Position numbers and translations under genes: made by a program | From: Epichloe hybrida | Lineage: Eukaryota; Ascomycota; Sordariomycetes; Hypocreales; Clavicipitaceae | Assembly: GCA_019022495.1 (NCBI GenBank) | Contig: JAFEKR010000015.1 | Coordinates: 1,054,001 to 1,118,000, forward strand | DNA: 64,000 nt | Direction of reading: 5' to 3' | In this document: positions 1-59,291 of the stretch, in pieces | How positions within the stretch are numbered: position 1 is the first letter of the stretch | Layout of the letters: each line of letters opens with the position of its first letter | The notes under the pieces: generated by a model | Seen by the model: only the letters and a program-made list of their open reading frames with translations | Databases searched by the model: none | What the model was told of the DNA's origin: nothing

Positions 1-17
1 ACTTAATATTTACTATA

Positions 18-284
18 TGTTAGGAGCACGGAGGCCAAGGGGCCATGGACGGGACAGTTATATGTTAGAGCCCTCGGATAAGCCTTAGGTTCTATAGATG
101 ACTAAGTAGCTATAAGATAGCCACGTGCATATAGTAAGGCATTTAAACAAGGACTGCCTATAAGAGATATAGGAGGTTAGAGTTTAAGACCTTAATATAC
201 CTACCCCTAAGTAGTAGCTCTCTAGCTATAACTAAGAACCTTAGCCTTTACTTTATTTATATCTCCTTAAATATAGTTATAATA
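18..284 (+). repeat. 5' LTR of gypsy element
   Basis: 267 bp, starting TGTTAGGAGCACGG and ending, after mutation, in TTATAATA. It aligns without gaps to 7921-8187, with transition differences of the C-to-T / G-to-A kind. The first ~130 bp still hold many CpA/TpG steps; the inner half is RIP-mutated. Confidence 0.9.
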
Positions 285-3200: not shown

Positions 3201-5020
3201 GTAAACTTATAGTATTTAGAGAACTCTAAAAGAAGTTCTAGGAGGCACTAATCTTAGTGCACTTTAACCTACTTTATTTACTAAGAGTAGAGACAGACAT
3301 ATCTAGTTACGTGATTAGAGCTATACTTATAATATTAGTGCTAGGTAGCTAGTACCTAGTGGCGTATTTTTTGAGGAAGTTAACTAATATTAAACTTCGC
3401 TACTTAACCCTAGACACTAAGTTATTAGCAATCTAAGAGGTGTTTTAAGCCTAGAGATATTACCTTGCGTATTTAACTTATTAGATTACAGTTATTATAA
3501 ACTATCTAAATCATAAGTACCTAGCTATAAAGCTAAAGCTATCTAGTAGGTAGGTAATAGCGTTAGACAAGCTCTATCTATTTAATTTCAGGATTAAATA
3601 TTATATAGGTAAGCTAAACCCTACTAATACCTTATTAAGAAGAGCAGATTATATTAGCAAGGAGCGTAGGGCAAAGGCTATGTCCTTATAGCTACCTAAC
3701 TTCTTAGCTAAGTTTTTAAATACTAAGTAGTAAGGGCGCTATATATATAATAGTGTAGTCACGGGCCCTAAGGTTACGTTACTTAGCGTAGTTAATAGTT
3801 TATTATAAGAACACTATAAGGGCTATTTAAGCCTCTAGGGTTTTAAGAAGATATAACTTTATTATATTATTAAGGAACCTAATAGTCCTATAAAGCCCGT
3901 AAGTAATACGCTAACTAGGTTTACTTATTATAAGTAGTAAGGTTATACCTTATCTATATTTTCTAATATTTCCGTAAGTCTAGCAAGCCTATGGGTTAGG
4001 AGTCTAGCTAGGTTAGTAGTTAGTAAGTAACGTAAGCGCCCCCTTGAAATACTACTTAGCTATAATTTATCTATAAGTCTAAAAGCACACTATAAGCTAG
4101 TCACTTATAGTAGTATTATAGTAAGAATATAAGTAGTCTAGCAAACCTCTTCTAAGTTTACACGTAATACGTGTCCTATGTACATAGAATTAAAGACTCT
4201 AATTTAAGTTATATTATTTTAAGTATAGTAAGGTAATAACTTTACTATAGGTTATAGGAAGCTACTTAAGAGTAGTAACCTTAAAGCATTATAGATATAG
4301 TCTATTAAGCCCTCTAAGCTATTAATGTTTTAAAATAGAGTTTTTGTTCTAGTAAGTATAAGAAAGGAAATTTTGCTACTTACCTATAATAACCTAGTAG
4401 TAAGCTACTAGGGAGTTAGTAAGACCCTCTATTAGATTGTAAGTTAGTATTACTAGCTAATAATAAAGAAAGACACTAAGTTATATATGCGAACTTACGT
4501 AAGCTATTAGACTTCAAAGCTAAGGCACTATAAACCTTATGGCAAGCTAGCTACGCTACTAGTGCCTAATTAGCCTTTTTAAGAATTATTAATAGATTTT
4601 GTCACAGGGCTACCACCTATAAAAGACGCAAATCAGACCTATAATACAATCTTAGTCATTATGAACTGTTTCATAAAATACAGTATTTATATCCCTATTT
4701 TAATGCAAATAACTAGTAATAGGTTAGCTACTATATTCCTAGAGTATATTTTTAGGGATTATAGCGCCCTAGAAAGTATTATTATAGACTATGGTTTGAC
4801 TTTCACTAGTAGGTTTTGGATGACCTTTTGCTATCTTATTATAACTAAGTAGTAACTAAGCACTGCGTTTTACTTGTAAATAGATAGTTAGATAGAACGT
4901 TTAAACTAAGTTTTAGAGCATTATTTAAGAGCCTTCACTTGCTTTAATTAGACTAATTAGGCTAATAATCTTTTAATAGCATAGTTTGCGTATAACATAA
5001 GCATCTATTTAACTTATAAC

Positions 5021-5101
5021 TGTTGAAATCAAAAGAGTGGACCGATCTGACTGAACCTAGGATTACAAAGCCTTATATATTTTTAACAATATATTTTAAC
5101 A
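5021..5101 (-). repeat. TRIM LTR, left copy
   Basis: 81 bp, identical to 5292-5372, with TGTT..AACA ends. Confidence 0.9.
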
Positions 5102-5185
5102 CTCCCCCTGGAATTGTATATCCAGGTGCCCTATTAGAGGTTAGGCTTATACTAGCAATTGAATTTCTTGTTATTATTTTTTCGG

Positions 5186-5287
5186 CAGGGTTCAAACCCA
5201 TAACCTTGCCTCGCAGAGCAGTGCTCCACTATGGTGGGCGGGCTAATACGCTACAGTGAGCCACAACCACTGCGCCACTGGGCTCAT
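5186..5287 (-). other. tRNA-like / SINE-like sequence with Pol III A and B boxes inside the TRIM
   Basis: On the minus strand TGGCGCAGTGG (5267-5277) matches the internal Pol III A-box consensus TRGCNNAGYNGG. GGGTTTGAACCC (5188-5199) matches the T-arm/B-box consensus GGTTCRANTCC with a perfect T-stem-like inverted repeat. They are 67 bp apart, longer than in an intronless tRNA. I could not fold a full cloverleaf with a matching acceptor stem. It is best read as a tRNA-derived module or pseudo-tRNA, not a functional tRNA gene. Confidence 0.6.
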
Positions 5288-5291
5288 AACC

Positions 5292-5372
5292 TGTTGAAAT
5301 CAAAAGAGTGGACCGATCTGACTGAACCTAGGATTACAAAGCCTTATATATTTTTAACAATATATTTTAACA
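5292..5372 (-). repeat. TRIM LTR, right copy
   Basis: 81 bp, identical to 5021-5101. It is followed at once by the target duplication ATAAC (5373-5377). Confidence 0.9.
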
Positions 5373-6060
5373 ATAACTACACCCTAGCTAAGGCGCTATA
5401 AGGCTATAACCCTAGGGGACTATAGTAAGTAGTTATAAATATCCCTATGGTAAATAACTAGGTAAAGACTTGTGCTACCACGCTAAGAGATAAATATATA
5501 GTAATTAAGCAGCTTCTAAGTAACTTATAGGCCTAGTATATAAAACACTATAATAAGAAGCGGACCCTAATAAAGTTTAAAGTAAGTAACTATGTTTTAT
5601 TATTTATAAAGAATATTAACTTATAGTAACCTAGTAGGAAGCTAAGTATAAAGTACCTAGGCCCTTATAAAATTAAAAAGGTAATTAGGACTTATAGTTT
5701 AGTGTACTAACTAAAGCTACTACCTAGTATATAACTATATAATATTTTTAATATTACTAATCTTAAACTGTTTATAGGGGATTTAACTAACATAGAAGAT
5801 ACGTCCTTATTACAAGAGAATATCACGGATAATAAGCAGGAGTTTAAAGTTAAAAGAATTATATTATATTATTATAATAGGAGATGTTAGAAATACCTAG
5901 TTAAATAGAAGGGCTATAATACTTTAGAGAACTCTTAGGTAAAGAAAAGAGATTTTATTATAATAAATATTATTAAGGATTATAAGTAGTAACTAAGTAG
6001 CTAGTTTGCGGATATAGAGTTATATTTAGTAGAGTTTAGATAGCAGCAGTAATATACAAA

Positions 6061-7909: not shown

Positions 7910-7920
7910 GGGGGGTAGTA

Positions 7921-8187
7921 TATTAGGAGTATAGAGGCTAAGGGGCTATGGATAGGATAGTTATATATTAGAGCCCTTAGATAAGCCTTAGGTTCTGTAA
8001 ATAACTAAGTAGCTATAAGATAGCTATGTATATGTAGTAAGGTATTTAGATAAGGACTGCCTATAAGAGATATAGGAGGTTAGAGTTTAAGACCTTTATA
8101 CACCCACCCCTAAGTAGTAGCTCTCTAGCTACAACCAAGAACCTTAGCCTTCACTCCGTTTATATCTCCCCGAACATAGTCGTGACA
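7921..8187 (+). repeat. 3' LTR of gypsy element
   Basis: 267-bp partner of 18-284. The inner part is RIP-mutated, while the last ~100 bp (8087-8187, ending GTCGTGACA) keeps CpA/TpG. It is followed by target duplication CTATA at 8188-8192. Confidence 0.9.
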
Positions 8188-31506: not shown

Positions 31507-32250
31507 GGTACCCTCGCCTTGGTCCAGCCGGGGACCACGACAGCTCCGACACCCTCGCCTTGGTCCAGTGGAGGACCCCCCCCTCAAGCAATGTATGGTC
31601 CTTCCTGGACCGGGCCCGGTACCCTCGCCTTGGTCCAGCCGGGGACCACGACCGCTCCGGCACCCTCGCCTTGGTCCAGTCAAGGACCCCCTCAAGCAAT
31701 GTATGGTTCTTCCTGGACCGGGCCAGGTACCCTCGCCTTGGTCCAGCCGAGGACCCCCCCTCAAGCAATGTATGGTCGGCCCGGCACCCTCGCCTTGGTC
31801 CAGCCGAGGACCCCCCTCAAGCAATGTATGGTCCTTCCTGGACCGGGCCCGGTACCCTCGCCTTGGTCCAGCCGGGGACCACGACCGCTCCGGCACCCTC
31901 GCCTTGGTCCAGTCAAGGACCCCCTCAAGCAATGTATGGTTCTTCCTGGACCGGGCCAGGTACCCTCGCCTTGGTCCAGCCGAGGACCCCCCCTCAAGCA
32001 ATGTATGGTCCTTCCTGGGCCGGGCCCGGTACCCTCGCCTTGGTCCAGCCGAGGACCCCCCTCAAGCAATGTATGGTCGGCCCGGTACCCTCGCCTTGGT
32101 CCAGTCGAGGACCCCCCTCGAGCAATGTATGGTCCTTCCTGGGCCGGGCCCGGTACCCTCGCCTTGGTCCAGCCGAGGACGCCCCCTCAAGCAATGTATG
32201 GTCCTGTCGAGGAACCCCCTCGAGCAATCTATGGTCCTTCCTGGTCCAGT
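31507..32250. repeat. GC-rich minisatellite with variable-length units
   Basis: About ten units begin GGTACCCTCGCCTTGGTCCA and end near CAATGTATGGTC with or without CTTCCTGG..GGGCC. Unit lengths are about 41, 56-57 and 67-69 bp, combined in a higher-order order in which a ~108-bp block recurs. C-run length (5 to 8) differs between units. All three plus frames and parts of the minus strand are stop-free for long stretches (328, 290 and 261 codons on plus), giving Gly/Pro/Trp-rich repeats. Neither of the two longest plus frames starts with ATG at its upstream end, so coding is unproven. Confidence 0.8.
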
Positions 32251-33568
32251 CGATCACTCTCCGACATAAGAAGTACAAAGGAATCCTTCTCGCAATCTAC
32301 GTATGGGGCTTCCTGGTACAATCCATAACTTCCCGATGTAAGTAATTTATGGAGCCCCTCTCGCAATCGATCTGGTCTTCTTAGTCTTGACGACTATATC
32401 GCAAGGATACCGACGAGCTATATAATAGACCTTTTCGTGGTCTAGTCGACGGCCTCTTGGTATTTCAAGTACTGATAGGACCGAGGCCTCTCGCAATCCA
32501 TCTGCTTGGCTTAGCTTTGCCGACGATCGCACCACACGGAGACCGACCAGCTGCTCACAACTGATCCCCCTGTCTTGGTCTTCTTAACAATCGTACCACA
32601 AGGGTATCACCCGGTTGTTCATAACTGACCCTTGTCTTGGTCTTTCTCATGATTGCACCACAAGGACACCACGCAGTTAGTATGCAATCCCGATGGTCAT
32701 CGCCTATCGACTTTGTAGGCATGCACTTTTGCGGCCACCATCTGGCGGCAACGAGTGATGGATGCAGGCTGACAAGCAGCTAGGCCACTGCGCTCTGCCA
32801 TACTAGGCGCTACCATACTACATTGTGATATTATCGCCTCAACGATCCTGACCCTCGTTCCAAGCGCACGAATAACAGTCAGACTATCCATGCTCCTATA
32901 GGAAATCTTCGGTATCCGGGGTTCAACCACGAAATGAGACATCAGTCTCCAGGCAGTGTGAGTGCTACGCTCCACATTGCAACCACATGTCCGGGGTAAA
33001 GCTGCTCGGCCATGACTCATGAGCGTCCTTTACTCTGACCCCCGCGGCAATACTACATACCTCGCCCGTGCCTTCTTAATTTAAGCTTGACGGAGCTTCG
33101 GAGCGATGATGCGCCCGCTGGGCAAGTTGGTCTTCGGAATGCGGAGTCGATCAAGTGCACGCCGTGCTGTTCGGCAGTTAAAAAAATTATGCATAAAAGA
33201 AATCTACCAAAAAATCATAAAAATGGAAATACTAGTGGCCGTGTGGCCTTGGATCTCTGTTCATGTTCTCTGTCTTTGAAGTGCTCTCTCTTCCCGAATG
33301 GAGTGAGGTCAATCTGGCTGGTTCTTTAGTCTCAATGGTATAGGCATTTCTGAAGCAAAAAAAAAAAAAAGTAGTTTCAGAAACAACAGCTATATACGAA
33401 GTAAATGGATGGTTGATGCGAGCAAGATGGTACAGTAGAATCAGAGAATATGTATGTACTTCAACTGCTGGGCGCTCAGCAGAGGAGGAATTGAAGCGAG
33501 TCAAGTGACCAGCTCCGTTGTCCTCGACCGTGACGTAAGCCCAGGCCCAACTCCCTTTCTCAATTGCT
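32251..33568. other. Decayed repeat tail and intergenic region
   Basis: From 32,250 to ~32,690 the minisatellite fades into diverged units that still carry TCTCGCAATC and CTTGGTC-like words. After that there is ordinary intergenic sequence with an A-run at ~33,357-33,371. No gene recognised. Confidence 0.5.
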
Positions 33569-34588
33569 TCAGCATCCGACTTGTGTCAGCAAAGCAAGCT
33601 TCCATGCCGCATTGTTGTAGTCGCCGTGTCCTCCAGGGCTCACTCCTTGATACAGATATTCTATTCCGCAGGGTTCGATTTGCATGGTCTGGTCAACGTT
33701 TTTGCGAACAGCCTCTCCATGACTAAACGAATTGGTCCATGGGGCTCCGGAGAACTTGACATTGGCATGGCCAGCGAAGGGGTTCTGTTCAGTACTGGCC
33801 AATGGCTTCCAGTGGCTCGCCAGGCTGTCGGAGATCCATGATCTGAAGTAGCGAAATCCGTCGAGGCTGCCAGCGGCCTCGACGATGAGGAGGTAAGAAC
33901 CGCCGACATTGTAAACGTTGGAAGCTTCGAAAAGCGCATACTTGGAGTCCTTCAAGGCAACGACAGGCTCGCTCATGCCACGGGGGAAGTCGGCAATAGA
34001 CGTCTGGGCGCGGTACAAGCAACCGTTGTCGCCGGTGGAAAACAAATGACAGTTGACCTCGTCACATATGACCCACATGTCTACCCAATCGCCACCGTTA
34101 AGGGTTTTCTTGATGGTGGACGGCACGGTGTGGTAAAAGTGCTGGGGGCGCGTCCATCCGGAAGGGTCGCTGATGTCGTGGTTGGTAGAGTATGCCGCAA
34201 GGCCATCGTGAAAGACCAAGTACCAGACCTTCTGAGACTCCTGAGACTCCATTAAGAAGACCTGTGGAGCGGCACGATAACCCACGCCCATGCCATCGAG
34301 ATAATGGAGGGTGGCCTGTTGTGCCTCCGCCCAGTCGGTGAAGCTCAGGTACACCAGGCTGGCGCCGCTGTCCTGGACGGTGCTGGCGAAGACGTGGTAT
34401 TTCCCATTGTAATGGACCACGGAGGGATCCTTGATGCCCTTGATGCCGCGGCCGTCATTTTTTGCACTGATGAGCGGGTCGGTCGATGTCCAGGAGAACT
34501 TGGTGGGGATGTTGGCTTTGGACACGTCAGATGAGGAGATTGCGCTGGCGGCGGCCGCGACGGCCCAGGCCAGAGGTAGGAACTTCAT
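33569..34588 (-). CDS. GH62 alpha-L-arabinofuranosidase, secreted
   Basis: 339 aa from the ATG at 34588. An in-frame upstream extension lacks signal-peptide character, while this start begins with MKFLPLAWAVAAAASA. Conserved GH62 blocks are seen in order: FSWTSTDPLISAKNDGRGI (31-49), KDPSVVHYNGKYHVFAST (53-70), GYRAAPQVF (103-111), WVDMWVICD (168-176) and LFEASNVY (219-226). Expected catalytic residues are D54 (general base), D170 (pKa modulator) and E221 (general acid). The family removes arabinose side chains from arabinoxylan and arabinan in plant cell walls. No carbohydrate-binding module is present. The gene ends beside a copia insertion that lies upstream (start side), ~260 bp from the ATG. 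Confidence 0.92.
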   Translation of the reverse strand: MKFLPLAWAVAAAASAISSSDVSKANIPTKFSWTSTDPLISAKNDGRGIKGIKDPSVVHYNGKYHVFASTVQDSGASLVYLSFTDWAEAQQATLHYLDGMGVGYRAAPQVFLMESQESQKVWYLVFHDGLAAYSTNHDISDPSGWTRPQHFYHTVPSTIKKTLNGGDWVDMWVICDEVNCHLFSTGDNGCLYRAQTSIADFPRGMSEPVVALKDSKYALFEASNVYNVGGSYLLIVEAAGSLDGFRYFRSWISDSLASHWKPLASTEQNPFAGHANVKFSGAPWTNSFSHGEAVRKNVDQTMQIEPCGIEYLYQGVSPGGHGDYNNAAWKLALLTQVGC

Positions 34589-34698
34589 GGGGGTCCGGGG
34601 GTGAGGCGAGGCGCAAGTGTTTGAAGTCCCCCTTTTTGGTGTGCCTTCTGGGGAGAGGAAGAATTGGGAAACCTGTCGCAATTAGGCGGGAAAGCTGG

Positions 34699-34742
34699 GC
34701 TTATATGTTATGAAGAAGTGGCTTATATGTTATAAGAAGTCG
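34699..34742 (-). promoter_or_regulatory. Duplicated TATA-like repeat upstream of the GH62 gene
   Basis: Two ~22-bp direct repeats of GCTTATATGTTAT plus GAAGT-like sequence lie 110-155 bp upstream of the ATG. On the minus strand each gives ACATATAAG, a plausible TATA element. Confidence 0.35.
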
Positions 34743-34851
34743 CCTGGAAGACGATTGGTCGAATGGATTCCTTCTGGCTCGATTAGGCAGAACAAGAAAG
34801 CCGGGTGTGGATACGTCGGTTTCACGCCGTGGATTTAGCCTGCTGAAACAA

Positions 34852-35084
34852 TGTTAGACCGAGCAGCTAGGATCAGAAATGAAGGTATGGATTGAGTTGC
34901 CCGACCCTGTAAGAGGGCGCGGACTACGGTTTAAATAACTAAGTACCTATACTATAGGGTATATAATCTACCTATATAAACTATACTATGCACCTACTAA
35001 AGGTCCGGAAAAGTAACTAGTTAGGTAGGTCCTAGTGTCTAAGTTACCTATATGTAGTTAAGCGCTTACAGTGGGATTCTAACA
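34852..35084 (-). repeat. Left LTR of first copia element
   Basis: 233 bp. The outer ~80 bp keep CpA/TpG and the inner part is mutated, the mirror image of the right LTR. Confidence 0.9.
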
Positions 35085-38000
35085 TATCCCCCTAGGAGGC
35101 CTGTAATTAAGGCATTCTGTGATAATTCAATTAAATTAACTTTGCAATGATTTAATTATTATTAATTATAGTAGGGTCTTCCAGTAATTCCTGCTCTTTT
35201 AGGTTAGTACTAAGCATTTAATCTAGTAACTGTATAAGCCCTAGTGCCTATCTAAAATCTATAAATGCTTTTCCTATTAGTAGCTTTATGAGGCTATTAG
35301 TAATTATCTCTTTTGTTACCTTCTAGGTAATATTAAAGGTTCCCTTTGTGACCTCTTAATGAAGCTAGTGATAATAGATATTAACGTGGCGTAAACGCGT
35401 TATAAGCTTAATAAATTCTTCCTTAAGAAGATAAATTATTTGCATATTGTCGCATTTAATCTTAAGGGTATTATCTCTAAGATATAATCTAACTTCCTAA
35501 TATAATTATTTAAAGGCAATTAGCTCTTTGCTATAATGTAATAGCGCTAGGAGCTTTGCTTCTGTAGAAGAGATTATTATAGTCTCTTATCTTCCTGCTT
35601 TAAAAAGCATAGGACCTCTAAAGAGCTTTATAACATAGCCTTATGAGCTTCTTCTTATAACTAGATTATTAGTAAAGGAAGTATTACTATATACTTTAAG
35701 TTTAGGGTTATTACTATTAAATTTAATTAAGAGATCTCCTTACGCGTAACTATACTCCAGAGCCTTTTCTATAGCTTCTATATGCTAAGGTCCTAGGTAT
35801 TAAAGGTGCTGTAATAGTTATAATACTACGAAGGCAATGTCTAGCCGTGTAATAATTATAGGATATAGTAAAGTACTAACTAGGGATTAATATCTCTTTA
35901 AATCCTTTAGATTAACATTACCTTTAAAAGGATTAAGTAGAATAGCAGTTATTAGTGCTATTAGCTTCCATTCTAGGACTTTAATGTTAAATTTAATCGC
36001 AGCTTTATTCTAATAGGACTTCTAATTAAGCTACAATTATTGATTTTCGCGATCTCTAATGATTTCAACTCCTAAGAACTATTACAATTCGCTAAGGTCC
36101 TTAATGTTATACCTCTTAAATAGTCTCTCTTTAAATTCCTTATAAAAAGCTAACTTTCCCTTTGCAAATAAGGCTATAAGGTTATTAACATAGAAGAAAA
36201 TAATTAATCTATCCTTAATAAACATATAAATATCTTTAAAGATCTATATAAATCCTTTACTTACTAACTATTTAATTAATTTCTTTATCTAAAGAAGGGG
36301 AGCTTTACGTAGCCTGTAGATAGCGCTTAAGAGCTTTAAGTAAGCTTATTCATCCCTATAACCTAGCGGTATCTTGTAATATACCTCTTTATCTAGCTTT
36401 AAGTTTAGGAAAGCTATAATAAAATTATACTAATAAGCTTTAAGGTTAAAGTAGCATAGAATTGCTATAAGGAGCCTGAATATAATACTTACTAATATAG
36501 CAGCTCTTGTAGAGAGGTTTCCTTTTGCTTGCTAATTCCTAAGCACACATAATTAAGCCTTATGCCTCACAAGGTAGCCTAATTAATTTAATTTATAGGC
36601 AAATACCTAAGTAAGTCCTAAGATCTTAATATATAAAGGGACTTCTAATCTACTAACTTTAATAGTAACCTTATTATTAATAACTTTATTATACTCTTTG
36701 TCTCTCACTTTAATAAATACCTTTTCTTTAGGGTACCTAGCTAAATAATTATAATAAGCAGGAGGTAAAGGAAGTCTTAATATATAAGGCTTTTCTTTAC
36801 TCTTAGCTCCTAGGGTAAAGGTAGTAGTAAAAGCTTTAAGGAGGTTATCTTTATTAATATTAGGAATATCTAGATCTTTGTCTTCGTAATCCATTTCGGA
36901 AGGATTTAACAGACTATCAATATTTATTAGTTTATAATCCGAAAAATCTGGTTAATAGCTAGGTGAATTCGGAGGAGTTAGGAGAGTCAATTCCTAAGTT
37001 TCTTTTCCTTTTTCTTTATTGTTTAGTTAATTGCGATTATGTTAACCTTCTTACTAATAGATTAGAGGGAGGGAGTCTTGTGCTTGTGAGTACCCTATAT
37101 CTTAAGGATGTCCTATATCTATATTATTAAACTCAAAGTCTTCTATAAGCTCTTAAAGGAGGTGTTTTTTAGGCTCTTTTTCCTTAATTAAAAGGTCCTT
37201 TTCTTAAGCGTAGAAGATTAACTTATCAAAGGTAACATAGCTTAATAAGAACTAACAATTCCTTTGCATTATTAGTACCTAAATTAGATATTAGGTGGAA
37301 GAGATATGACTAGCTAGATAACTGATGTGAGCTCTTTATGATAGCTTTAGACCTATCTTCCTAAGCCTATCCTATGTTATTACGAAAGCTTTATAACTGA
37401 AAGCTTAAAGATAATTTAATAAAGCTTTCGGTTTCTCTAGTAGATGATTTTATTAAAGCTTGTTCTCTTGTAGCTATTTGTTTAAAGCTTAATGTAGTAA
37501 AAGCTAATCTAGAGACTTTCTAGGCATGTAATTAAGGATGTAAATAGCTACTTCCGTAGCTATAGGCTAAAGATTCTCTGGAAAGCCTGCTTAAGTTATT
37601 AGAGTTATTATAACTCTTATTATTACCCCCCTAGACTACTTAGCATGCCTATTTTAATGCGAATAAGCTAGACTAGACTTTCTAATAATAATGCCTTTAT
37701 TAGTAACTTCTACCTCTTGCTTCTTAGTCTAGAAGGTAGTTTCCCTATTAGTAATAATAACTATAATATGGATTCTAAAGGCTCTTATGTAGCGCGCTTC
37801 TAATTAATCAAAGCAAGACGCGATTTTAGTCTTTATTAGAATTATGAAGATATGGCAGAGGCCTATTACTTTACAAGTAAAGAGAGTAATATAATAATCC
37901 TTATTATAGCCCTGCAATTAAGTAAAGAGGTTATAGGTTATAACCTAAAGAGGTCCTAAGGGTAGGGAATCTATCTATAGAACTCGTAATATCTGCCTCT

Positions 38001-40044
38001 ATGCCTTAGCTATATAACAAATTTTGCATTTACCCTTACTACGCTCTTTTATTAGTACGTTAACCTTTTAAAGCACTTAATCCATTATATCTTTACCTAG
38101 ATAAGCTATTCTTACGTGCCAAAGGTTTACTTTTGTGGCTATTAGGGGTTTTAGGTCACGAGAGTCCCTTCTAATAGCAAAAGCCTTATTAAGGCTATCC
38201 CCTTTAATACATAGTTAAGTACTAATAGTTATAGTTAAAAAGATCTTATAATTACCCCTTACTAGGTCTATAATAATCCCTATAAGATTATCTTACCTTA
38301 TACCTTTTATTATAAGTAACTAAAGTAATATAAGGTTCGCAAAGAAGGTTAGTTAATACTGCGCGTTTAACAACGTAAGGGTGTGGCTATCTATTAATTT
38401 AATCCAGGCTATGCTAACGCCGTAAGCCTTAGTAACTCTATACCTAGCTTAGATACTTAGTTAATTACCGTAATCTAGGTTAATAAACTAGCGTTCATCA
38501 TTAAAGATATATACTAAAGTACTGCTATTAAGTATTACTTGTAAGCGCCCTTAGGCATAAAAAGCCTCTAAAGATAGCTCTGTAGTAACAAAGGCAGTAT
38601 CGCCCTCTAGCTTGCTTTCCTTTGCTTCCTTTATGTTATGCTCCTTAAGCCACGTGTTATAGGCCTTTTTAATATCTTTAGATTGTTAATTTATTACTTC
38701 TTTTGCCTTTTTTAATTAATCTTCCTTAATAGTCTAATTCTTAGGCAGGTAAAGTATTTAATAGTTCTTCTAAGAGTCCTTTATCTTCTTAGCCTTATAC
38801 TTATTATAATAAATATAAAGTAGCTTTTTATCTCCCTTATTAAGATCTTCTTTAGTCTAACTATTAAGAGTTAGCTTTACTCTAAAAGATTCTCTGGATT
38901 TACTTTAAGACCTTCCCTAGGCTTTAATTAGGTATCTAATCCTTGTAATTATAGAGTAGAAATTAAGGGTTTTACCCTTAATCTTAGTAGTAAAGATTAG
39001 TAAATTAATTTAAGCCGAAATTAAAGGGAATCGGGTGCCAATAGCATCATTAATCATCTTAATTAGAGAGTTGCCTTTCGTAATTAAGTAATTTGCTTGA
39101 AAACATCGCTTATAGCTAATTAATACGTTAGTAAGCCATTTATTAATATTAACCTTTACTAGGCTACACTTAATAACTTTGTTAAAGTTAACCTTAGCGT
39201 GATGCCTAATTGTTCTATTTAAGGGCATTATATTCCTTATAAGCTCTCTAAGCTTCTTATAAAGCAAGATATACTATAGGATCATTTACTTATACTTATT
39301 TCTAAGCGTTGTAATAAACTAATTATAGTATTCTCTTATAGTCTTTAATAGACTCTAATACTAACTGTTAAACACTTAATATTATCCATTAAGAACTATA
39401 CACTAAGCGCTATCTTTAGTATTATCTAGTTATTAAGGGTATTTAAAGTATCCCTCTTTAGTTAAGTTAATAATAGGAGTAATGCTTATAGGAGGAGAGC
39501 TTTCTTAAGGTTACTACTAATCGCTTGTGACTCTAGATATTAACGTTCTTAAGCGTGTTTAAGGCCCTTTGGTCTGGTTTTCTAGTAAAGTGGTTAAAGC
39601 TATAATTACTACTTTTCTTGTTACTAGAGTCCCTTTTCCTATTAGGATTAGCGGCTTAGGTAAGCAGTTAAGAGTTATTATTAAATTAGGATTAATAAAG
39701 ACCCAAATCCTATCTTTAATAGCTCTTGCCTTTATTATCTTAAACCACAGGTCCTAATAGTAGGGTTCCTATAGCTTAACTACTAGCTCATAGCCTTAAG
39801 CAGTGTTAGTTTCCTTAGACATCTCGATAATATCCTGTGTTATTACAATTTGTTAAACTTCAACCCACGCAGATCTTCCTTGCTACTAGGGGTCGCCTAA
39901 TCACAATATTAATGATTGTAATTAAACCCTATCCTCTTACTAGGATATACCAAATTTAACGATTAATTAATTGGAAATAACTTAATAAAGGTATTAATTA
40001 GAAAGAAAGGTCTTTGTATTATAAACACCAAGCAATTACTACTA
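35085..40044 (-). pseudogene. RIP-degraded copia gag-pol
   Basis: Minus-strand translation through stops shows a zinc/integrase-type segment near 38,070-37,850 (KGKCKICYIAKA followed by ITYNLFTQLQGYNKDYY). Reverse transcriptase shows the copia catalytic box degraded to FFYVNNLI at ~36,177-36,215. Open remnants at 36,607-36,894 and 39,010-39,267 have no stops by chance. I could not place gag confidently. The order integrase then RT identifies Ty1/copia. Closely related to the interior of the second copia element (54,076-59,071). Confidence 0.75.
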
Positions 40045-40277
40045 TATTAGACTAAGCAGCTAGGATTAGAAATAAAGGTATAGATTAAGTTACCTAACCC
40101 TATAAGAGAGCGCGGACTACGGTTTAAATAACTAAGTACCTATACTATAGGGTATATAATCTGCCTATATAAACTATACTATGCACCTACTGAAGGTCCG
40201 GAAAAGTAACTAGTTAGGTGGGTCCTAGTGTCCAAGTTGCCTGCATGCGGTTAAGCGCTTGCGGCGGGATTCCAACA
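40045..40277 (-). repeat. Right LTR of first copia element
   Basis: 233 bp. The outer ~80 bp (ending GATTCCAACA) are unmutated and the inner part is RIP-mutated. Confidence 0.9.
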
Positions 40278-40860: not shown

Positions 40861-40903
40861 TTTATACATAACTATCCCTCTCTAGGGGCGTATGCTTTTC
40901 CCT

Positions 40904-41138
40904 CTGCCAAGACGTCACTTAGCAGATATCTAAGGAGAAGTAACGTCTTGGCAGATAATACCTTTTCTCTCCTTTCCTCCTCCTAAAATAATAGCTCTGC
41001 CAAGACGTCACTTGGCAGATATCTAAGGAGAAGTAACGTCTTGGCAGATAATAACACCATTTCTCTTCTCCTTCCAAAATAACAGCTTTACTAAGACATC
41101 ACTTAGCAGATATCTAAGGAGAAGTAACGTCTTAGTAG
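40904..41138. repeat. Three tandem 51-bp hairpin repeats (period ~92 bp)
   Basis: Units 40904-40954, 40997-41047 and 41088-41138 each begin CTGCCAAGACGT and end ACGTCTTGGCAG, a 12-bp inverted repeat with a central AGATATCT palindrome. The third unit shows RIP-type changes (CTGCC to TTACT). They lie ~350 bp beyond the end of the Helitron helicase, on its 3' side. Confidence 0.85.
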
Positions 41139-41489
41139 ATAATAATACCTTTCCCCCTCTTATAATCTTGAATTAATTTATGTTAAATTAATGTAAATAG
41201 GAGATTTAATAACTAGGACTAGGCTATAAGATTCTTTTATTTAAGGAGCAGGAGGGGTCTAAGCTAGGTTAATATGCAGAGGTAGCTTAACTACCTTATT
41301 ATTATTAACAATAAAGCTAATGAAGCTCTTATTATCTAAACTTATTAAAATTTCTATATCTAATAAGATATATTGGCTTTGTCTAGCTATTACGTGGCAT
41401 AAATTGTTTCTACCTCTTGTCACTGCGTATTAAGAGCCCTTAGGCTAGTATCTAGGTTAGTCTAGGAAGTAAGAGTGCTAAGATTAAAG

Positions 41490-51911: not shown

Positions 51912-53495
51912 TCAATCGAACAAAGTAGCTATTTCCAAAAGTAGCCGATAAAGGTATATGGACATGTCAATCTCTCGCAGGACTTGTCGTGACCACGTAG
52001 ATGCAGCTTGTGCAATCTCCGCCGAAAAGCGTCTCCCTCTTGGATCATTGACCAGAAAAGTGATGAGTGCGGGTAACTCCTCCATAGTCATACTCACCGG
52101 AATATAATGAGCCCACGGGACAAGCCGCTCATCATGCCATTCTTGAAACCAGGTTTGCTTCAAGACCACTGCCTGTCGGGAGAGGAGGCGATAAAATCTC
52201 GTGCTCATGCTGTTTCCATCAATATCGTAGAGGAATTGATGGTCGGATGCTGTATCTTCGGGCTCGGCATCTGAAGGCCCCAGCACTCGTTCCATGTCCT
52301 TGCAAGACTCTGCGTCACACTGAATGTAGTTGCCGACATGAACGTCAAAAGCGTCCCTCAGTACTCTTGTTCGCTGCTCATTGACGTCGTCCGTCTTCAA
52401 TCCGAAAAACCGACCCGTGTCGAGTACATTGGCTGTGTTTTGGAGCGACTGGACAAATGCGACGAAACGCTCCCTGTGTCCGTGTTTCCATGTAAACCGG
52501 GAAGCTTCACCTCCTGTGGTCGATCCTCGCCAATACACCATGGGTTTCTTCTCGGAAAATGCCACGGAATCTTCTTGCAGAAGAGGATGCGCGGCGTAAC
52601 AAGGGCATGGGATCAGAATATCTCGAAAGGCCGTCATGCGACCAAAGCTCAGAATTGGGACCAGCGACTGAGTGTAGGAGAAAGTGCTGGGCGAGCTTAT
52701 GAGAGCATGAAGGTCCGCGGGATGCGGGTACTGGCAGACGTCTTTGTGTTCGCCTTGGGAGCTATCTACCTGCGGAGTAACCTGGGCGCACGACTCCAAT
52801 ATCAAATCCTCAATCGACTCCCCCGGGCGATCCGTAAACTCCGCCACTGCTGGCGGCGCAGAGGTACTCAGGATTCTCGGTTCATCGATGCCGTTCAGGT
52901 AGAAGAGGCTGTCGGGCAGTGCATGAAGAAATGGCTCGACTAATTTCTTCCACTCTGCGTCGTACAAATATGCATTGGACATGGCCATAGTTCCGTTTCG
53001 AATCGTGACGCGAGATGTGCGAGGACAATGTTTGGACTGGCTTTGAAGCAGCGAGAAGGCTTGTCGAGCTTCTGGTGTACGGTATGGCTCGAGATCTCGG
53101 TCGATCTGGTCGAAGTCATCGATGATTTTGGATCCGTGACTCAGCGCGAAGTTCACCCAGTCCTCGAAGCCCTCGGGAGGGTTTCTGTGGTACCGTCGTT
53201 TATACTCGACAACTGCTTCTGCTGCACTTGTTGACTGGACCCTGCCATACGATCGTGCCTTTTCCTGTGCGGATAGTATTTGACAGATGAATCCGGTCGG
53301 GGTAATATCATTCAAGGCTTTTGGCGAACAAGCTTTCAGAGAAGCATGATCGTGATTAGTCGTGGGTTTGAAATTGGAATACGACCGAAATGACGCATAG
53401 CCCAGGGTGACTGTGAAGAGGAAGATGGCAAAAGTGACGACAGGCTTCAGACTCCGCACGAAGAGCGCGGGGTTAAATTGATGGAGGGATACCAT
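51912..53495 (-). CDS. CAP10-like glycosyltransferase family 90 (GT90) protein, type II membrane
   Basis: 527 aa, no intron. A short N-terminal cytosolic part, one membrane anchor at about 17-36 (VVTFAIFLFTVTLGYASF), then a lumenal domain. GT90/CAP10 features are in the C-terminal half: MVYWRGSTTGGEASRF (~319-334), HRERFVAF, then YDIDGNSMSTRFYRLLSRQAVVLKQTWFQEWHDERLVPWAHYIPV, the nucleotide-sugar-binding and C-terminal core. Relatives are xylosyl/glucosyltransferases such as Cryptococcus Cap10 and animal Rumi. Location in the Golgi and a role in cell-wall or surface glycan decoration are inferred. The gene's start lies ~360 bp from a copia insertion. Confidence 0.88.
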   Translation of the reverse strand: MVSLHQFNPALFVRSLKPVVTFAIFLFTVTLGYASFRSYSNFKPTTNHDHASLKACSPKALNDITPTGFICQILSAQEKARSYGRVQSTSAAEAVVEYKRRYHRNPPEGFEDWVNFALSHGSKIIDDFDQIDRDLEPYRTPEARQAFSLLQSQSKHCPRTSRVTIRNGTMAMSNAYLYDAEWKKLVEPFLHALPDSLFYLNGIDEPRILSTSAPPAVAEFTDRPGESIEDLILESCAQVTPQVDSSQGEHKDVCQYPHPADLHALISSPSTFSYTQSLVPILSFGRMTAFRDILIPCPCYAAHPLLQEDSVAFSEKKPMVYWRGSTTGGEASRFTWKHGHRERFVAFVQSLQNTANVLDTGRFFGLKTDDVNEQRTRVLRDAFDVHVGNYIQCDAESCKDMERVLGPSDAEPEDTASDHQFLYDIDGNSMSTRFYRLLSRQAVVLKQTWFQEWHDERLVPWAHYIPVSMTMEELPALITFLVNDPRGRRFSAEIAQAASTWSRQVLREIDMSIYLYRLLLEIATLFD

Positions 53496-53855
53496 GCTGC
53501 CGAGAGAAGATAAAAAGCTATTTCATGACGTCCGTTTGTGCAAGGAAAGGAAACACTTGCACGCCCAGATCACTCTGAGCTGGCTTTCAAGAAATTGCAA
53601 TGCGTCCCCCCCTGCATTATTTTGCAAATCTATCCCCCAGTTGTTCGTTCATCTCTAACAGCTAGAGTTCGCTGTAAGGATCACTACATAGAGAGATAAG
53701 AAGGGTGTAGGTTCATGTGTAAATTAGCCTAATTAGCCTATAATCAAGGCCCCATGTACATGTAAAGAACACGCCAACTGACATGGTTGGGAGCCCAACT
53801 CATCCGGTGTTATCGGGACTTGTACGGATTATGTAAATGAGCTGTGATGTATAAG
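53496..53855. other. Promoter side of GT90 gene up to copia insertion
   Basis: 360 bp of unmutated DNA, no RIP leakage from the neighbouring element. The target duplication ATAAG is at 53851-53855. Confidence 0.6.
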
Positions 53856-54075
53856 TGTCAGGTAGGGGTGTAGATAGATGATGAAAAGTGTTCCCTTCGA
53901 TCAATCAGAGGTGCAGACGGCAGCCGACTTTTGTACCTAAAGGGTACATAGTGCGCTATAGTAATAACTAGTCTACGGAGGTACTTCTAATACATTCGTC
54001 TCCACTGATATCTTATCCTAGTTAATGCGTGCCCCTTGCCTACATATCTAATACTTTAGGGAGCTTTTCCTAACA
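53856..54075 (-). repeat. Left LTR of second copia element
   Basis: 220 bp. Outer ~95 bp unmutated, inner part RIP-mutated. Confidence 0.9.
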
Positions 54076-57000: not shown

Positions 57001-59071
57001 TTATATTAAGGTTATAAGGCATATAAAAACACACTAATACCTATTACTATTCTAATAAGAAGAGTTATAGTACTCTAGATTAACTAAAAGCCTATAACCT
57101 AGTCCTTAAGGAAGTTCTTTAGGTATAACCTATAATCTCTAGCGCTTAGCTTTACTTATAGCATAGATCTTATACTCTATAAGCTTAGGTCCTGTTAATT
57201 TAATACCTAAAGTTATATTTATAAGCTTTATAAAAGCCTTTTTACCTAGATAACTACTTCTATAATGCTAGAGATCTACATCTCCTCTTATAAGTAGCCT
57301 AGGAGCTTTGCTTAATATAGCGTTAGCCTCTTTTAGGTCTTCTAATAGCCTTAAAAGCATATAAAGCTTATTAATATTATATACCCTAGCTATAGGCTAA
57401 TTTTCTTTGTAGAGAAATCCCTTCTTTTAATTCCAGAAGATACCTACCTTTATTATAATTATTACTAATACTAGATTAATATGAAATTTAGGAATAAATA
57501 AAGCTATCTCTAATATAATAGTTCTCGCTCTTTACAATATAGGATTTATAATAGATATACTTATAGGCCCTTAACCTAAAGCTATATAGATTATACTACT
57601 AGCCTTAACCTCTATTACTATATCCTTATTAAATTTAGATTATTTAAACCATTAGATATTATTAAAGATATAAATATTTACTCTAGAGTTATAGAGGACT
57701 ATGTTTCTTCTTAATTCTAAGTTATTCCTAGTATTTAATAAATTCACGCTTTCCTTTAATAATTCCACGCGCTTAAAGTATATAAATAATAATATATTAG
57801 CTAACTTTTTGCCTAGAGTAATAGCTACTAAGTTATTTATAGGGTTTTATAAAGGTATAATAATCTTATTACCCTTCTTCTTTAGCTTCTAATTTATAGC
57901 CTTTAATTTCTCCTATAGGTTAGCCTTAAGATACTTCTTAATATTCTCTTTAGAGTTCTTTCTAACTTCCTAGTTCTTTAGAGTAGCTTCTAGCTTATAG
58001 AGAGCCTTAAATAAATTATAGGATTCCTACTACTTTAAGGCATCCTTTATATTATAATTTATATATCTAGGGCACTTAGGCTTCTCTAGCTTTATTAAAT
58101 TATTTAATCTATTACTTATAAGAGCATTAGTAGTCTTTAGTTCCTTTAATAGGGCCTTATAGTCTCTTTTAAACTTAGTAATAGCTTTAATTAAGCTTAT
58201 TTTCGTCCCTTTATTAAGCAGGTTATTTTACTTCTTCTAAAATAACTTATATTTACTTTAAAAAGGCATAATAAACTTATATAGTATTATCTCTTTAGTC
58301 TATTAGGTCCCTAGGTCTAGATAATTTCTCTAAAGTACTTTAATTATTATAGCTTACTTATACTAATTATAGGTACCTTTAGCTTATAAATAATTATTTA
58401 AATAGTTCTCTATAAGGATTAGTATCTTTTTTATATTTAGCTTATACTACTTATAAAGAAGTAAGAGTATTCTTTAAATATAATATTAGATAGACTCCTT
58501 CTTCTTAACCTTAGTATTAAAGTTAAGGGAATCTTAAATATTCTTTAAAAGGGTCTTATAAATATATTCCCTAATCTTTAGTATTTACTTAGCTAGATTA
58601 TAATACTTTATAAGCTTAAATTAAAGCTCCTTATATTTAAAATTAAAGTAATCCTTTATATCTTTATATACTAGCTTCTAATCCTTAAGAGCATTAGGGT
58701 TATTCTCTATAATCTCTAGTCTCTAATCCCTCTATAGGTATATAAGTATTATAGGTTCTTTAAGTAATTTAACCTTATTTAGGTTAATATACTCCTAGAC
58801 CCTATAGGATTCTATATAATTCTTAATCTATATAAACTACTTAATCTAGTCTTTCTCTAATAATAACACTATATTTAGAGTTTCTTTAGATATATTAAAG
58901 GGGAATATACTATATAAGGGAAGCGTAGGATATGTTAATTAACTATTAATTAATATAATAAGGGCGTTTATCTTGTAATATTAGTAAGCATTAATTTAAT
59001 TAATTTAACAGAGCTTAATAACCTTAAAGATAATAATAAATTTAGTAATAGAAATTACCTAGGCTTATAAC
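54076..59071 (-). pseudogene. RIP-degraded copia pol of the second element
   Basis: The RT catalytic box survives as FFYVDNII (~55,165-55,195, minus). The region 55,020-55,130 resembles 36,050-36,130 of the first copia element, so the two are related families with different LTRs. No long open frame. Gag was not placed. Confidence 0.7.
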
Positions 59072-59291
59072 TATTAGGTAGGGGTGTAGATAGATAATAA
59101 AAAGTATTCCCTTTGATTAATCAGAGGTATAGACAGCAGCTGACTTTTATACCTAAAGGGTATATAGTGCGCTATAGTAATAACTAGTCTACAGAGGTAC
59201 TTCTAATACATTCGTCTCCACCGATGTCTCATCCTAGTCAATGCGCGCCCCTCGCCCACACATCCAATGCTTCAGGGAGCTCTTCCTGACA
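59072..59291 (-). repeat. Right LTR of second copia element
   Basis: 220 bp. Outer ~95 bp (59,197-59,291) unmutated, inner part mutated. Confidence 0.9.

What the first reader, a model, noticed from the sequence alone, without database searches (positions are those of the whole stretch)
5021..5372. Miniature LTR element whose interior looks like a tRNA-derived Pol III unit
A complete 352-bp TRIM has identical 81-bp LTRs, target duplication ATAAC, polypurine tract and primer-site-like sequence. Its interior has an A box TGGCGCAGTGG and a B box GGGTTTGAACCC with T-stem symmetry, 67 bp apart. SINE-like tRNA sequence inside an LTR-type mobile unit is unusual. Possible readings: a tRNA-templated or tRNA-captured miniature retroelement, or Pol III transcription driving a Pol II-type retroelement.
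Basis: partly seen in the sequence, partly recalled or inferred. Interest (0 to 1): 0.8.

Follow-up and report, generated by a model that had tools for sequence, protein, structure and literature searches.

The report
Mini-retrotransposon carrying a tRNA-derived piece
In a grass-endophyte-like fungus, a tiny "copy-and-paste" element that appears to borrow its enzymes from a larger relative has swallowed a tRNA-derived segment in its middle, and its many copies preserve traces of how such hybrids are assembled.

Summary
At 5021-5372 lies a complete 352-bp TRIM: identical 81-bp LTRs, TSD ATAAC, PPT, PBS, and an interior with tRNA-type A and B boxes. Sense is the minus strand. It is a family: 117 tRNA-like and 122 PBS+A-box sites (<=2 mismatches) in the 80-Mb genome. 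In 58 aligned interiors the tRNA-like part sits at the same place and is followed by a variable poly(A) tract. Outside that insert the element is Copia: LTR, PBS and the last 68 bp match a 4.8-kb Copia copy lacking the insert. So the family is a Copia deletion derivative that captured a poly(A)-tailed, tRNA-derived (SINE-like) segment. I think it is transcribed from its LTR, primed by the initiator-tRNA anticodon half, and mobilised by Copia. An active Pol III promoter is not supported: it would start RNA at the LTR/PBS border, the boxes show no excess conservation, and four copies carry T5 between them. Closest known kind is Helenus (tRNA-like sequence inside the LTRs; basidiomycetes, animals, one plant). 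Here it is internal, in an ascomycete close to Epichloe. Copies with a Copia-b LTR on the left and the short LTR on the right suggest strand transfer between co-packaged cDNAs.

The parts
5016..5020 (.). target site duplication ATAAC (left in + coordinates)
   Evidence: matched by script as GTTAT in sense
5021..5101 (-). 3' LTR (LTR-a, 81 bp)
   Evidence: 100% identical to the other LTR; 98.8% to the 3' LTR of the Copia copy C74:424636-424716
5102..5109 (-). polypurine tract AGGGGGAG
   Evidence: present in 57 of 58 aligned interiors, the 58th cut by the match end
5102..5169 (-). 68-bp Copia-derived 3' internal end (INT 123-190)
   Evidence: 98.5% identical to C74:424568-424635 next to that Copia's 3' LTR
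5177..5182 (-). poly(A) tract at the 3' end of the captured segment (6 A here; 5-22 in 58 copies)
5183..5277 (-). captured tRNA-derived segment (tRNA-like from position 8/A box to just past the T arm), about 95 nt
   Evidence: absent from Copia C74 and present in 58 aligned interiors; no tRNA fold, z-score 0.30
5188..5199 (-). B box (G)GGTTTGAACCC; family majority GGTTCGAACCC (exact in 50 of 58)
5267..5277 (-). A box TGGCGCAGTGG (exact in 48 of 58)
5278..5291 (-). primer-binding site GGTTATGAGCCCAG, shared with Copia; complementary to an initiator-Met tRNA anticodon arm (tRNA sequence recalled)
   Evidence: 14 of 14 nt identical in L092 (C74), L091, L093, L094; two initiator-like places match a 28-place pattern with 1 mismatch
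5292..5372 (-). 5' LTR (LTR-a, 81 bp)
5344..5350 (-). TATATAA motif in the 5' LTR, candidate Pol II promoter
   Evidence: LTR position 23; function inferred
5373..5377 (.). target site duplication ATAAC (right)

Best explanation
It is a TRIM: a non-autonomous, Copia-derived LTR retrotransposon whose coding interior was lost and in which a reverse-transcribed, poly(A)-tailed, 5'-truncated tRNA-derived RNA (SINE-like) now lies between PBS and PPT. Most likely steps: (1) Pol II transcribes it from the TATA-bearing LTR that it shares with Copia (inferred); (2) Copia Gag packages the RNA together with Copia RNA (inferred; supported by hybrid copies); (3) the anticodon half of initiator tRNA-Met primes minus-strand synthesis at the PBS (inferred from the PBS); (4) the PPT primes the plus strand (inferred) and Copia integrase inserts the cDNA with a 5-bp TSD (TSDs shown, enzyme inferred). 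The captured segment probably entered by template switching during reverse transcription: at its 3' end from Copia RNA onto a poly(A) tail, at its 5' end back to Copia at the PBS (inferred from the junctions). The tRNA boxes are then a fossil of the donor, not the working promoter. The confidence given is for the core (Copia-derived TRIM with a captured tRNA-derived segment, LTR-driven); rival 2 below differs only in the route of capture and is not exclusive of that core.
For: Shared Copia parts: LTR 97.5% (79 nt) and 98.8% (81 nt), PBS 14/14, last 68 internal bp 98.5% with C74:419918-424716, which has LTR-a at both ends, TSD GTATT (read) and no tRNA-like part; it holds weak gag_pre-integrs and rve matches, then RVT_2 (4 of the 7 pieces searched gave no family), and an almost full RVT_2 domain with 6 stops, 151.7 bits. 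TSDs: 18 of 19 single copies with full-length LTR matches have an exact 5-bp TSD by script; in the 19th the LTR match stops two bases short. Insert: 58 interiors show PBS | TGGCGCAGTGG ... GGTTCGAACCCTGCCG | (A)5-22 | CAACTAAAGAAATTC (majority reading), and Copia C74 reads GCAGACAACTAAAGAAATTC at that 3' point. A second junction with the same tRNA-like start exists: C80:1360259 joins Copia body (1323 bp at 95.5% to C74) to TGGCGCAGTGG where C74 has AAGCGCAG, a 6-bp microhomology (one place in the genome at <=3 mismatches). Trans-mobilisation: six held loci have a Copia-b LTR (801 bp) directly before PBS+interior and the 81-bp LTR after it; four show the same 5-bp TSD around the hybrid (ATTAC, GTTAT, ATCCT, GAACC, read).
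Against: No free SINE of this type was identified, so the donor is not shown. The 5' junction lacks an acceptor stem, so the tRNA origin rests on A/B boxes and their spacing (79 bp start to start; 43-74 in 17 of the 19 tRNA genes, the other two mis-anchored at 30). C74 itself is decayed and no intact partner was read; five listed RVT_2 matches without a stop exist elsewhere but were not linked to this family. 11 further single copies matched only a shortened LTR on one or both sides, and the script found a 5-bp TSD in 2 of them, a 4-bp one in 1 and none in 8. The 58 interiors come from held loci that were the best matches of three searches, which favours similar copies.
Confidence: 0.78

Rival explanations
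1. Working internal Pol III promoter: the A/B boxes recruit TFIIIC/Pol III, making the element a TRIM transcribed by Pol III like Cassandra and (proposed) Helenus.
For: A box exact in 48 of 58 and B box exact in 50 of 58 interiors; box scores within the range of real tRNA genes; the second junction (C80:1360259) starts at the same base, as expected if a 5'-truncated RNA with that end is a recurrent template.
Against: Boxes lie downstream of the LTR, so RNA would lack the 5' R region needed for first strand transfer; LTR with TATA motif is shared with Copia; boxes not unusually conserved; T5 between boxes in 4 of 58 copies, 3 with TSDs (that T5 weakens Pol III is recalled, and fungal Pol III may need longer runs); in the window copy no TTTT in the interior and one T4 in the LTR.
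Confidence: 0.12
2. Ordinary nested insertion (another route of capture, same core): a tRNA-derived SINE retroposed into a Copia interior by target-primed reverse transcription, and later deletions removed the Copia sequence upstream of it.
For: Poly(A) tract of variable length directly 3' of the tRNA-like part; two different upstream deletions ending at the same base fit one old insertion.
Against: No SINE-type TSD is visible at the junctions read; two deletions ending at exactly the same base would be a coincidence; no free SINE copies identified.
Confidence: 0.3
3. Chance resemblance: the A/B boxes are coincidental in a non-tRNA sequence.
For: ARAGORN and Rfam do not call a tRNA; fold is not tRNA-like.
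Against: No hit as good in 3.84 Mb simulated, next best in the window about 10 bits lower; a poly(A) tract follows.
Confidence: 0.04

Closest known systems
Helenus (TRIMp3), Kojima 2024, PMC10886601 (abstract, introduction, results, discussion, legends and tables read; methods and supplements not)
   Same: TRIM of a few hundred bp with tRNA-like A/B boxes; fungal members have 5-bp TSDs, mostly an initiator-Met anticodon-loop PBS, and a Copia partner; tandem arrays are reported for the zebrafish family LTR-11_DR.
   Different: [quoted passage not shown] here it is in the interior and the LTR has no such boxes (regular-expression test). Helenus in fungi is listed from Pucciniales and a few Agaricomycetes; this host looks like an ascomycete. 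The paper found no LTR similarity in its Helenus/Copia pair (LTR-1_PTrit and Copia-9_PGr); here the LTR is 97.5-98.8% identical to a Copia copy's LTRs.
Cassandra (TRIM with 5S rRNA promoter in the LTR; as described in PMC10886601)
   Same: TRIM with a small-RNA-gene sequence; tandem arrays (PMC4717578, passage).
   Different: 5S not tRNA; in the LTR, where a Pol III start still leaves repeated RNA ends.
SMART and tandemly arrayed plant TRIMs (Gao 2016, PMC4717578, passages; Wukong, PMC4528315, passages)
   Same: Tiny size, multi-LTR arrays, 5-bp TSD (Wukong).
   Different: No tRNA-derived insert is described in the passages seen (0 occurrences of tRNA in the held main text of PMC4717578).
tRNA-derived SINEs (recalled; also introduced in PMC10886601)
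   Same: A/B boxes followed by a poly(A) tract.
   Different: Here the unit has LTRs, PBS, PPT and 5-bp TSD; no free copy identified.

Membership tests
TRIM | Direct LTRs flanking a short internal domain, total under about 1 kb | tested here: met
   352 bp, 81-bp identical LTRs
TRIM | PBS after the 5' LTR and PPT before the 3' LTR | tested here: met
   PBS 14/14 shared with Copia, PPT AGGGGGAG; activity not tested
TRIM | No coding capacity, multiple dispersed copies with TSD | tested here: met
   190-bp interior; 18 of 19 single copies with full LTR matches have a TSD by script
Helenus | tRNA-like sequence inside the LTRs | tested here: not met
   No A/B-box match in the 81-bp LTR; boxes are at 5188-5199 and 5267-5277, inside the interior
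Helenus | 5-bp TSD and Copia partner (fungal members) | tested here: met
Helenus | Initiator-Met anticodon-loop PBS (dominant fungal type) | tested here: inconclusive
TRIMp3 | Functional RNA polymerase III promoter | not testable with these tools
   No RNA data; geometry, T5 copies and lack of excess conservation speak against
tRNA-SINE | A and B boxes | tested here: met
tRNA-SINE | Mobilised by target-primed reverse transcription with free dispersed copies | tested here: inconclusive
   Of 100 listed tRNA-like places (of 117), 87 have a PBS listed 57-70 bp upstream; 13 have none within the listed 100 of 122 PBS places
Ty1/Copia | Integrase before RVT_2 reverse transcriptase in the partner | tested here: met
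   gag_pre-integrs (E 2.3e-4) and rve (E 0.0059), both below the Pfam cut-off, in L114; RVT_2 (1.4e-13) downstream in L043; RVT_2 at C74:423778-424539, 151.7 bits

The most novel reading that the evidence does not exclude
The internal A/B boxes are live: Pol III makes RNAs that start near the LTR/PBS border and run into the 3' LTR, Copia packages them, and because they lack a usable 5' end the reverse transcriptase must jump to a Copia RNA. The element would then be a recombination engine that keeps regenerating Copia/TRIM hybrids (a PBS junction and a pol junction starting at the same tRNA base, mixed LTRs, arrays of unlike units), a retroelement life cycle that uses Pol II and Pol III RNAs of the same unit.
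Probability: 0.12. Interest if true: 0.8.

Novelty: new variant of a known kind. Interest (0 to 1): 0.5.

Why it matters
If right, it extends small-RNA-bearing TRIMs to the Ascomycota and to a new position (internal), where a Pol III promoter should not be able to support the LTR replication cycle; this makes the proposed promoter role of tRNA-like sequences in TRIMs testable. The family also seems to keep DNA fossils of co-packaging: mixed-LTR copies with clean TSDs, and arrays of unlike units inside one TSD, that point to the Copia family that shared particles with the TRIM without needing LTR similarity.

Tried and rejected
tRNA gene or functional tRNA: rejected. Primer-tRNA copied into the element: rejected, orientation after the PBS is tRNA sense. 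Arrays as simple tandem duplications of one copy: rejected, units in one array differ as much (mean 5.7%, 18 pairs in 9 arrays) as units of different loci (5.4%, 1635 pairs). Selection on A/B boxes: tested, no excess conservation. RNA fold of the insert: no signal, z 0.30. Hybrids as a TRIM-b family with the Copia-b LTR at both ends: the TRIM 3' end joined to LTR-b was not found (0 places at <=3 mismatches; this pattern had no positive control) while the 5' junction gives 33 places at <=2 mismatches, among them all 6 held hybrids (the 56 further places at 3 mismatches include ordinary LTR-a copies such as the window's own and were not counted). Not excluded is a form that uses Copia-b's own 3' end, whose PPT differs. 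First merging of loci assumed flipped orientation and gave conflicts, redone. Literature searches for prior art; only PMC10886601 was close among the listings; the library holds open-licence papers only, and Repbase was not searched.

Full report
Observation. On the minus strand it reads 5' LTR (5372-5292), PBS (5291-5278), A box (5277-5267), B box (5199-5188), poly(A) (5182-5177), Copia-derived end with PPT (5169-5102), 3' LTR (5101-5021). The LTRs are identical and the TSD is ATAAC. The A+B pair scores 30.8 bits with matrices from 19 tRNA genes of this genome; the next best pair in the window is 21.1 and none in 3.84 Mb of simulated sequence reaches it. ARAGORN and Rfam call no tRNA there.

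Host. An ORF at 51912-53495 is 89% identical over its length to an Epichloe bromicola protein; a database protein without a name is 100% identical. The assembly has 79.9 Mb in 156 contigs. AT-rich blocks have high TpA/ApT and low (CpA+TpG)/(ApC+GpT), the pattern of RIP (recalled), and the TRIM lies in such a block. I take the host to be a clavicipitaceous ascomycete; species not determined, and this rests on one protein.

Copies. Whole-element search: 56 matches with 40 of 127 candidates scored. The tRNA-like middle matches 117 places with up to 2 mismatches and PBS plus A box 122 places. In 51 merged regions the script found 19 single LTR-interior-LTR copies with full LTR matches, 18 with an exact 5-bp TSD; 11 single copies with a shortened LTR match, of which 2 have a 5-bp and 1 a 4-bp TSD; and 10 chains with two or more interiors, 7 of them with one 5-bp TSD around the whole array. 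An eighth array (C35:659719) shows GAACC when its Copia-b LTR is included (read). An LTR-only search listed 40 places; the 30 with DNA are 23 distinct places, 20 with the tRNA-like interior. Held loci were best matches of the searches, so similarity among them is partly by choice.

Interior. In 58 interiors (55 distinct) the order is PBS, A box (exact in 48), spacer, B box GGTTCGAACCC (exact in 50; the window copy has a T for C), TGCCG, 5-22 A, then CAACTAAAGAAATTC in the majority and on to the PPT. Substitution rates are 1.3% (PBS), 1.7% (A), 1.3% (B), 4.6% (between), 2.2% (Copia end), mostly C-to-T/G-to-A. But A and B boxes together are not unusual: 906 of 2701 pairs of 11-bp stretches in the insert vary as little or less with C-to-T/G-to-A set aside, 854 of 2701 with all changes. 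Four interiors carry TTTTT between the boxes; three of these sit at insertions with TSDs (C67:807708, C70:151061; C57:905750).

Copia relation. Copy C74:419918-424716 has LTR-a at both ends, TSD GTATT (read), the same 14-bp PBS and the same last 68 internal bp, but Copia sequence between. Its pieces give weak gag_pre-integrs and rve matches (below Pfam's cut-off), then RVT_2 (4 of 7 pieces gave nothing); the genome search gives RVT_2 at C74:423778-424539 with 151.7 bits and 6 stops. This is the Ty1/Copia order in a decayed copy. It reads GCAGACAACTAAAG where the TRIM majority reads (A)nCAACTAAAG. Some Copia stretches read GGTTATGAGCCCGGTTCTATC after the LTR, so the TRIM leaves Copia at about the first base of the A box. 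One other place, C80:1360259, leaves Copia after 1323 aligned bp (95.5% to C74) and enters the insert at the same base, TGGCGCAG for Copia's AAGCGCAG; a genome-wide pattern finds this junction once.

Mixed LTRs. Six held loci have an 801-bp LTR (LTR-b, as before the same PBS in L091 and L093) directly before the PBS and LTR-a after the interior. Four have the same 5 bp on both sides (ATTAC, GTTAT, ATCCT, GAACC). C97 is preceded by a PPT-like stretch and C80:778008 runs on into Copia, so they look like parts of longer arrays. Nearest neighbours of the six interiors are ordinary copies of several subtypes, C57 and C97 sharing theirs, so the exchange probably happened more than once, at or near the PBS. 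Genome-wide the LTR-b|PBS|A-box junction occurs at 33 places with up to 2 mismatches and TRIM-end|LTR-b at none with up to 3 (no positive control). Canonical reverse transcription makes both LTRs alike; a mixed pair of this polarity is what intermolecular transfer of Copia-b plus-strand strong-stop DNA onto TRIM minus-strand DNA through the shared PBS would give. This is inference; gene conversion after insertion is a rival.

Arrays. Units in one array differ as much as units of different loci (5.7% over 18 pairs against 5.4% over 1635), so arrays join different cDNAs, before integration or by recombination with a resident copy. Arrays are known in plant TRIMs (PMC4717578 and PMC4528315, passages) and in Helenus LTR-11_DR (PMC10886601, section read).

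Comparison. [quoted passage not shown] that feature was tested and is not met, so I do not file this as Helenus, though it looks like a fungal Helenus in PBS type, TSD length and Copia relation. The author finds no priming role for the tRNA-like part and expects a Pol III promoter to make long shared LTR stretches unlikely; here the LTR is shared with Copia, which fits Pol II transcription. I found no report of the internal arrangement in the searches listed under Tried and rejected.

Verdict. A real, multi-copy, Copia-derived TRIM with a captured tRNA-derived poly(A)-tailed segment: a new variant of a known kind. The Pol III idea stays open but is the less likely one.

Noticed in passing
window 16-277 and 7919-8180: 262-bp direct repeats, 86% identical, 7.9 kb apart in RIP-like AT-rich DNA: possibly the LTRs of an old element inside which the TRIM is nested.
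   Followed up: no
window 34848-35084 / 40041-40277 and 53850-54075 / 59066-59291: Two further repeat pairs about 5.2 kb apart (89% and 88%), possibly LTR pairs of decayed retrotransposons.
   Followed up: no
window 31522-32345: Nested tandem repeats (spacings 56-125 bp) inside long overlapping ORFs.
   Followed up: no
window 40879-41153: Three 91-bp imperfect repeats with a recurring motif like CTGCCAAGACGTCACTT.
   Followed up: no
window 1-64000: Alternation of AT-rich RIP-like and GC-rich 4-kb blocks: TpA/ApT 1.2-1.9 in eight, 0.5-0.7 in seven, 1.06 in 32001-36000.
   Followed up: partly
L084 and L085 (C69 and C8); L088 and L089 (C85 and C77): Pairs of TRIM loci with the same 8-bp flanks on different contigs: segmental duplicates or haplotigs; L084 and L085 both also hold a tRNA-Pro-like call with an intron.
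   Followed up: no
C1:3128403 region (L052): Copia-b LTR fused directly to the tRNA-like part at AGCCCGG, PBS start lost, then LTR-a and Copia sequence: looks like a secondary deletion in an array.
   Followed up: partly
C74:419918-419998 (L092) against C74:424636-424716 (L043): The two LTRs of this Copia copy end differently (TTTGAATA against TTTCAACA) although the TSD is intact.
   Followed up: no
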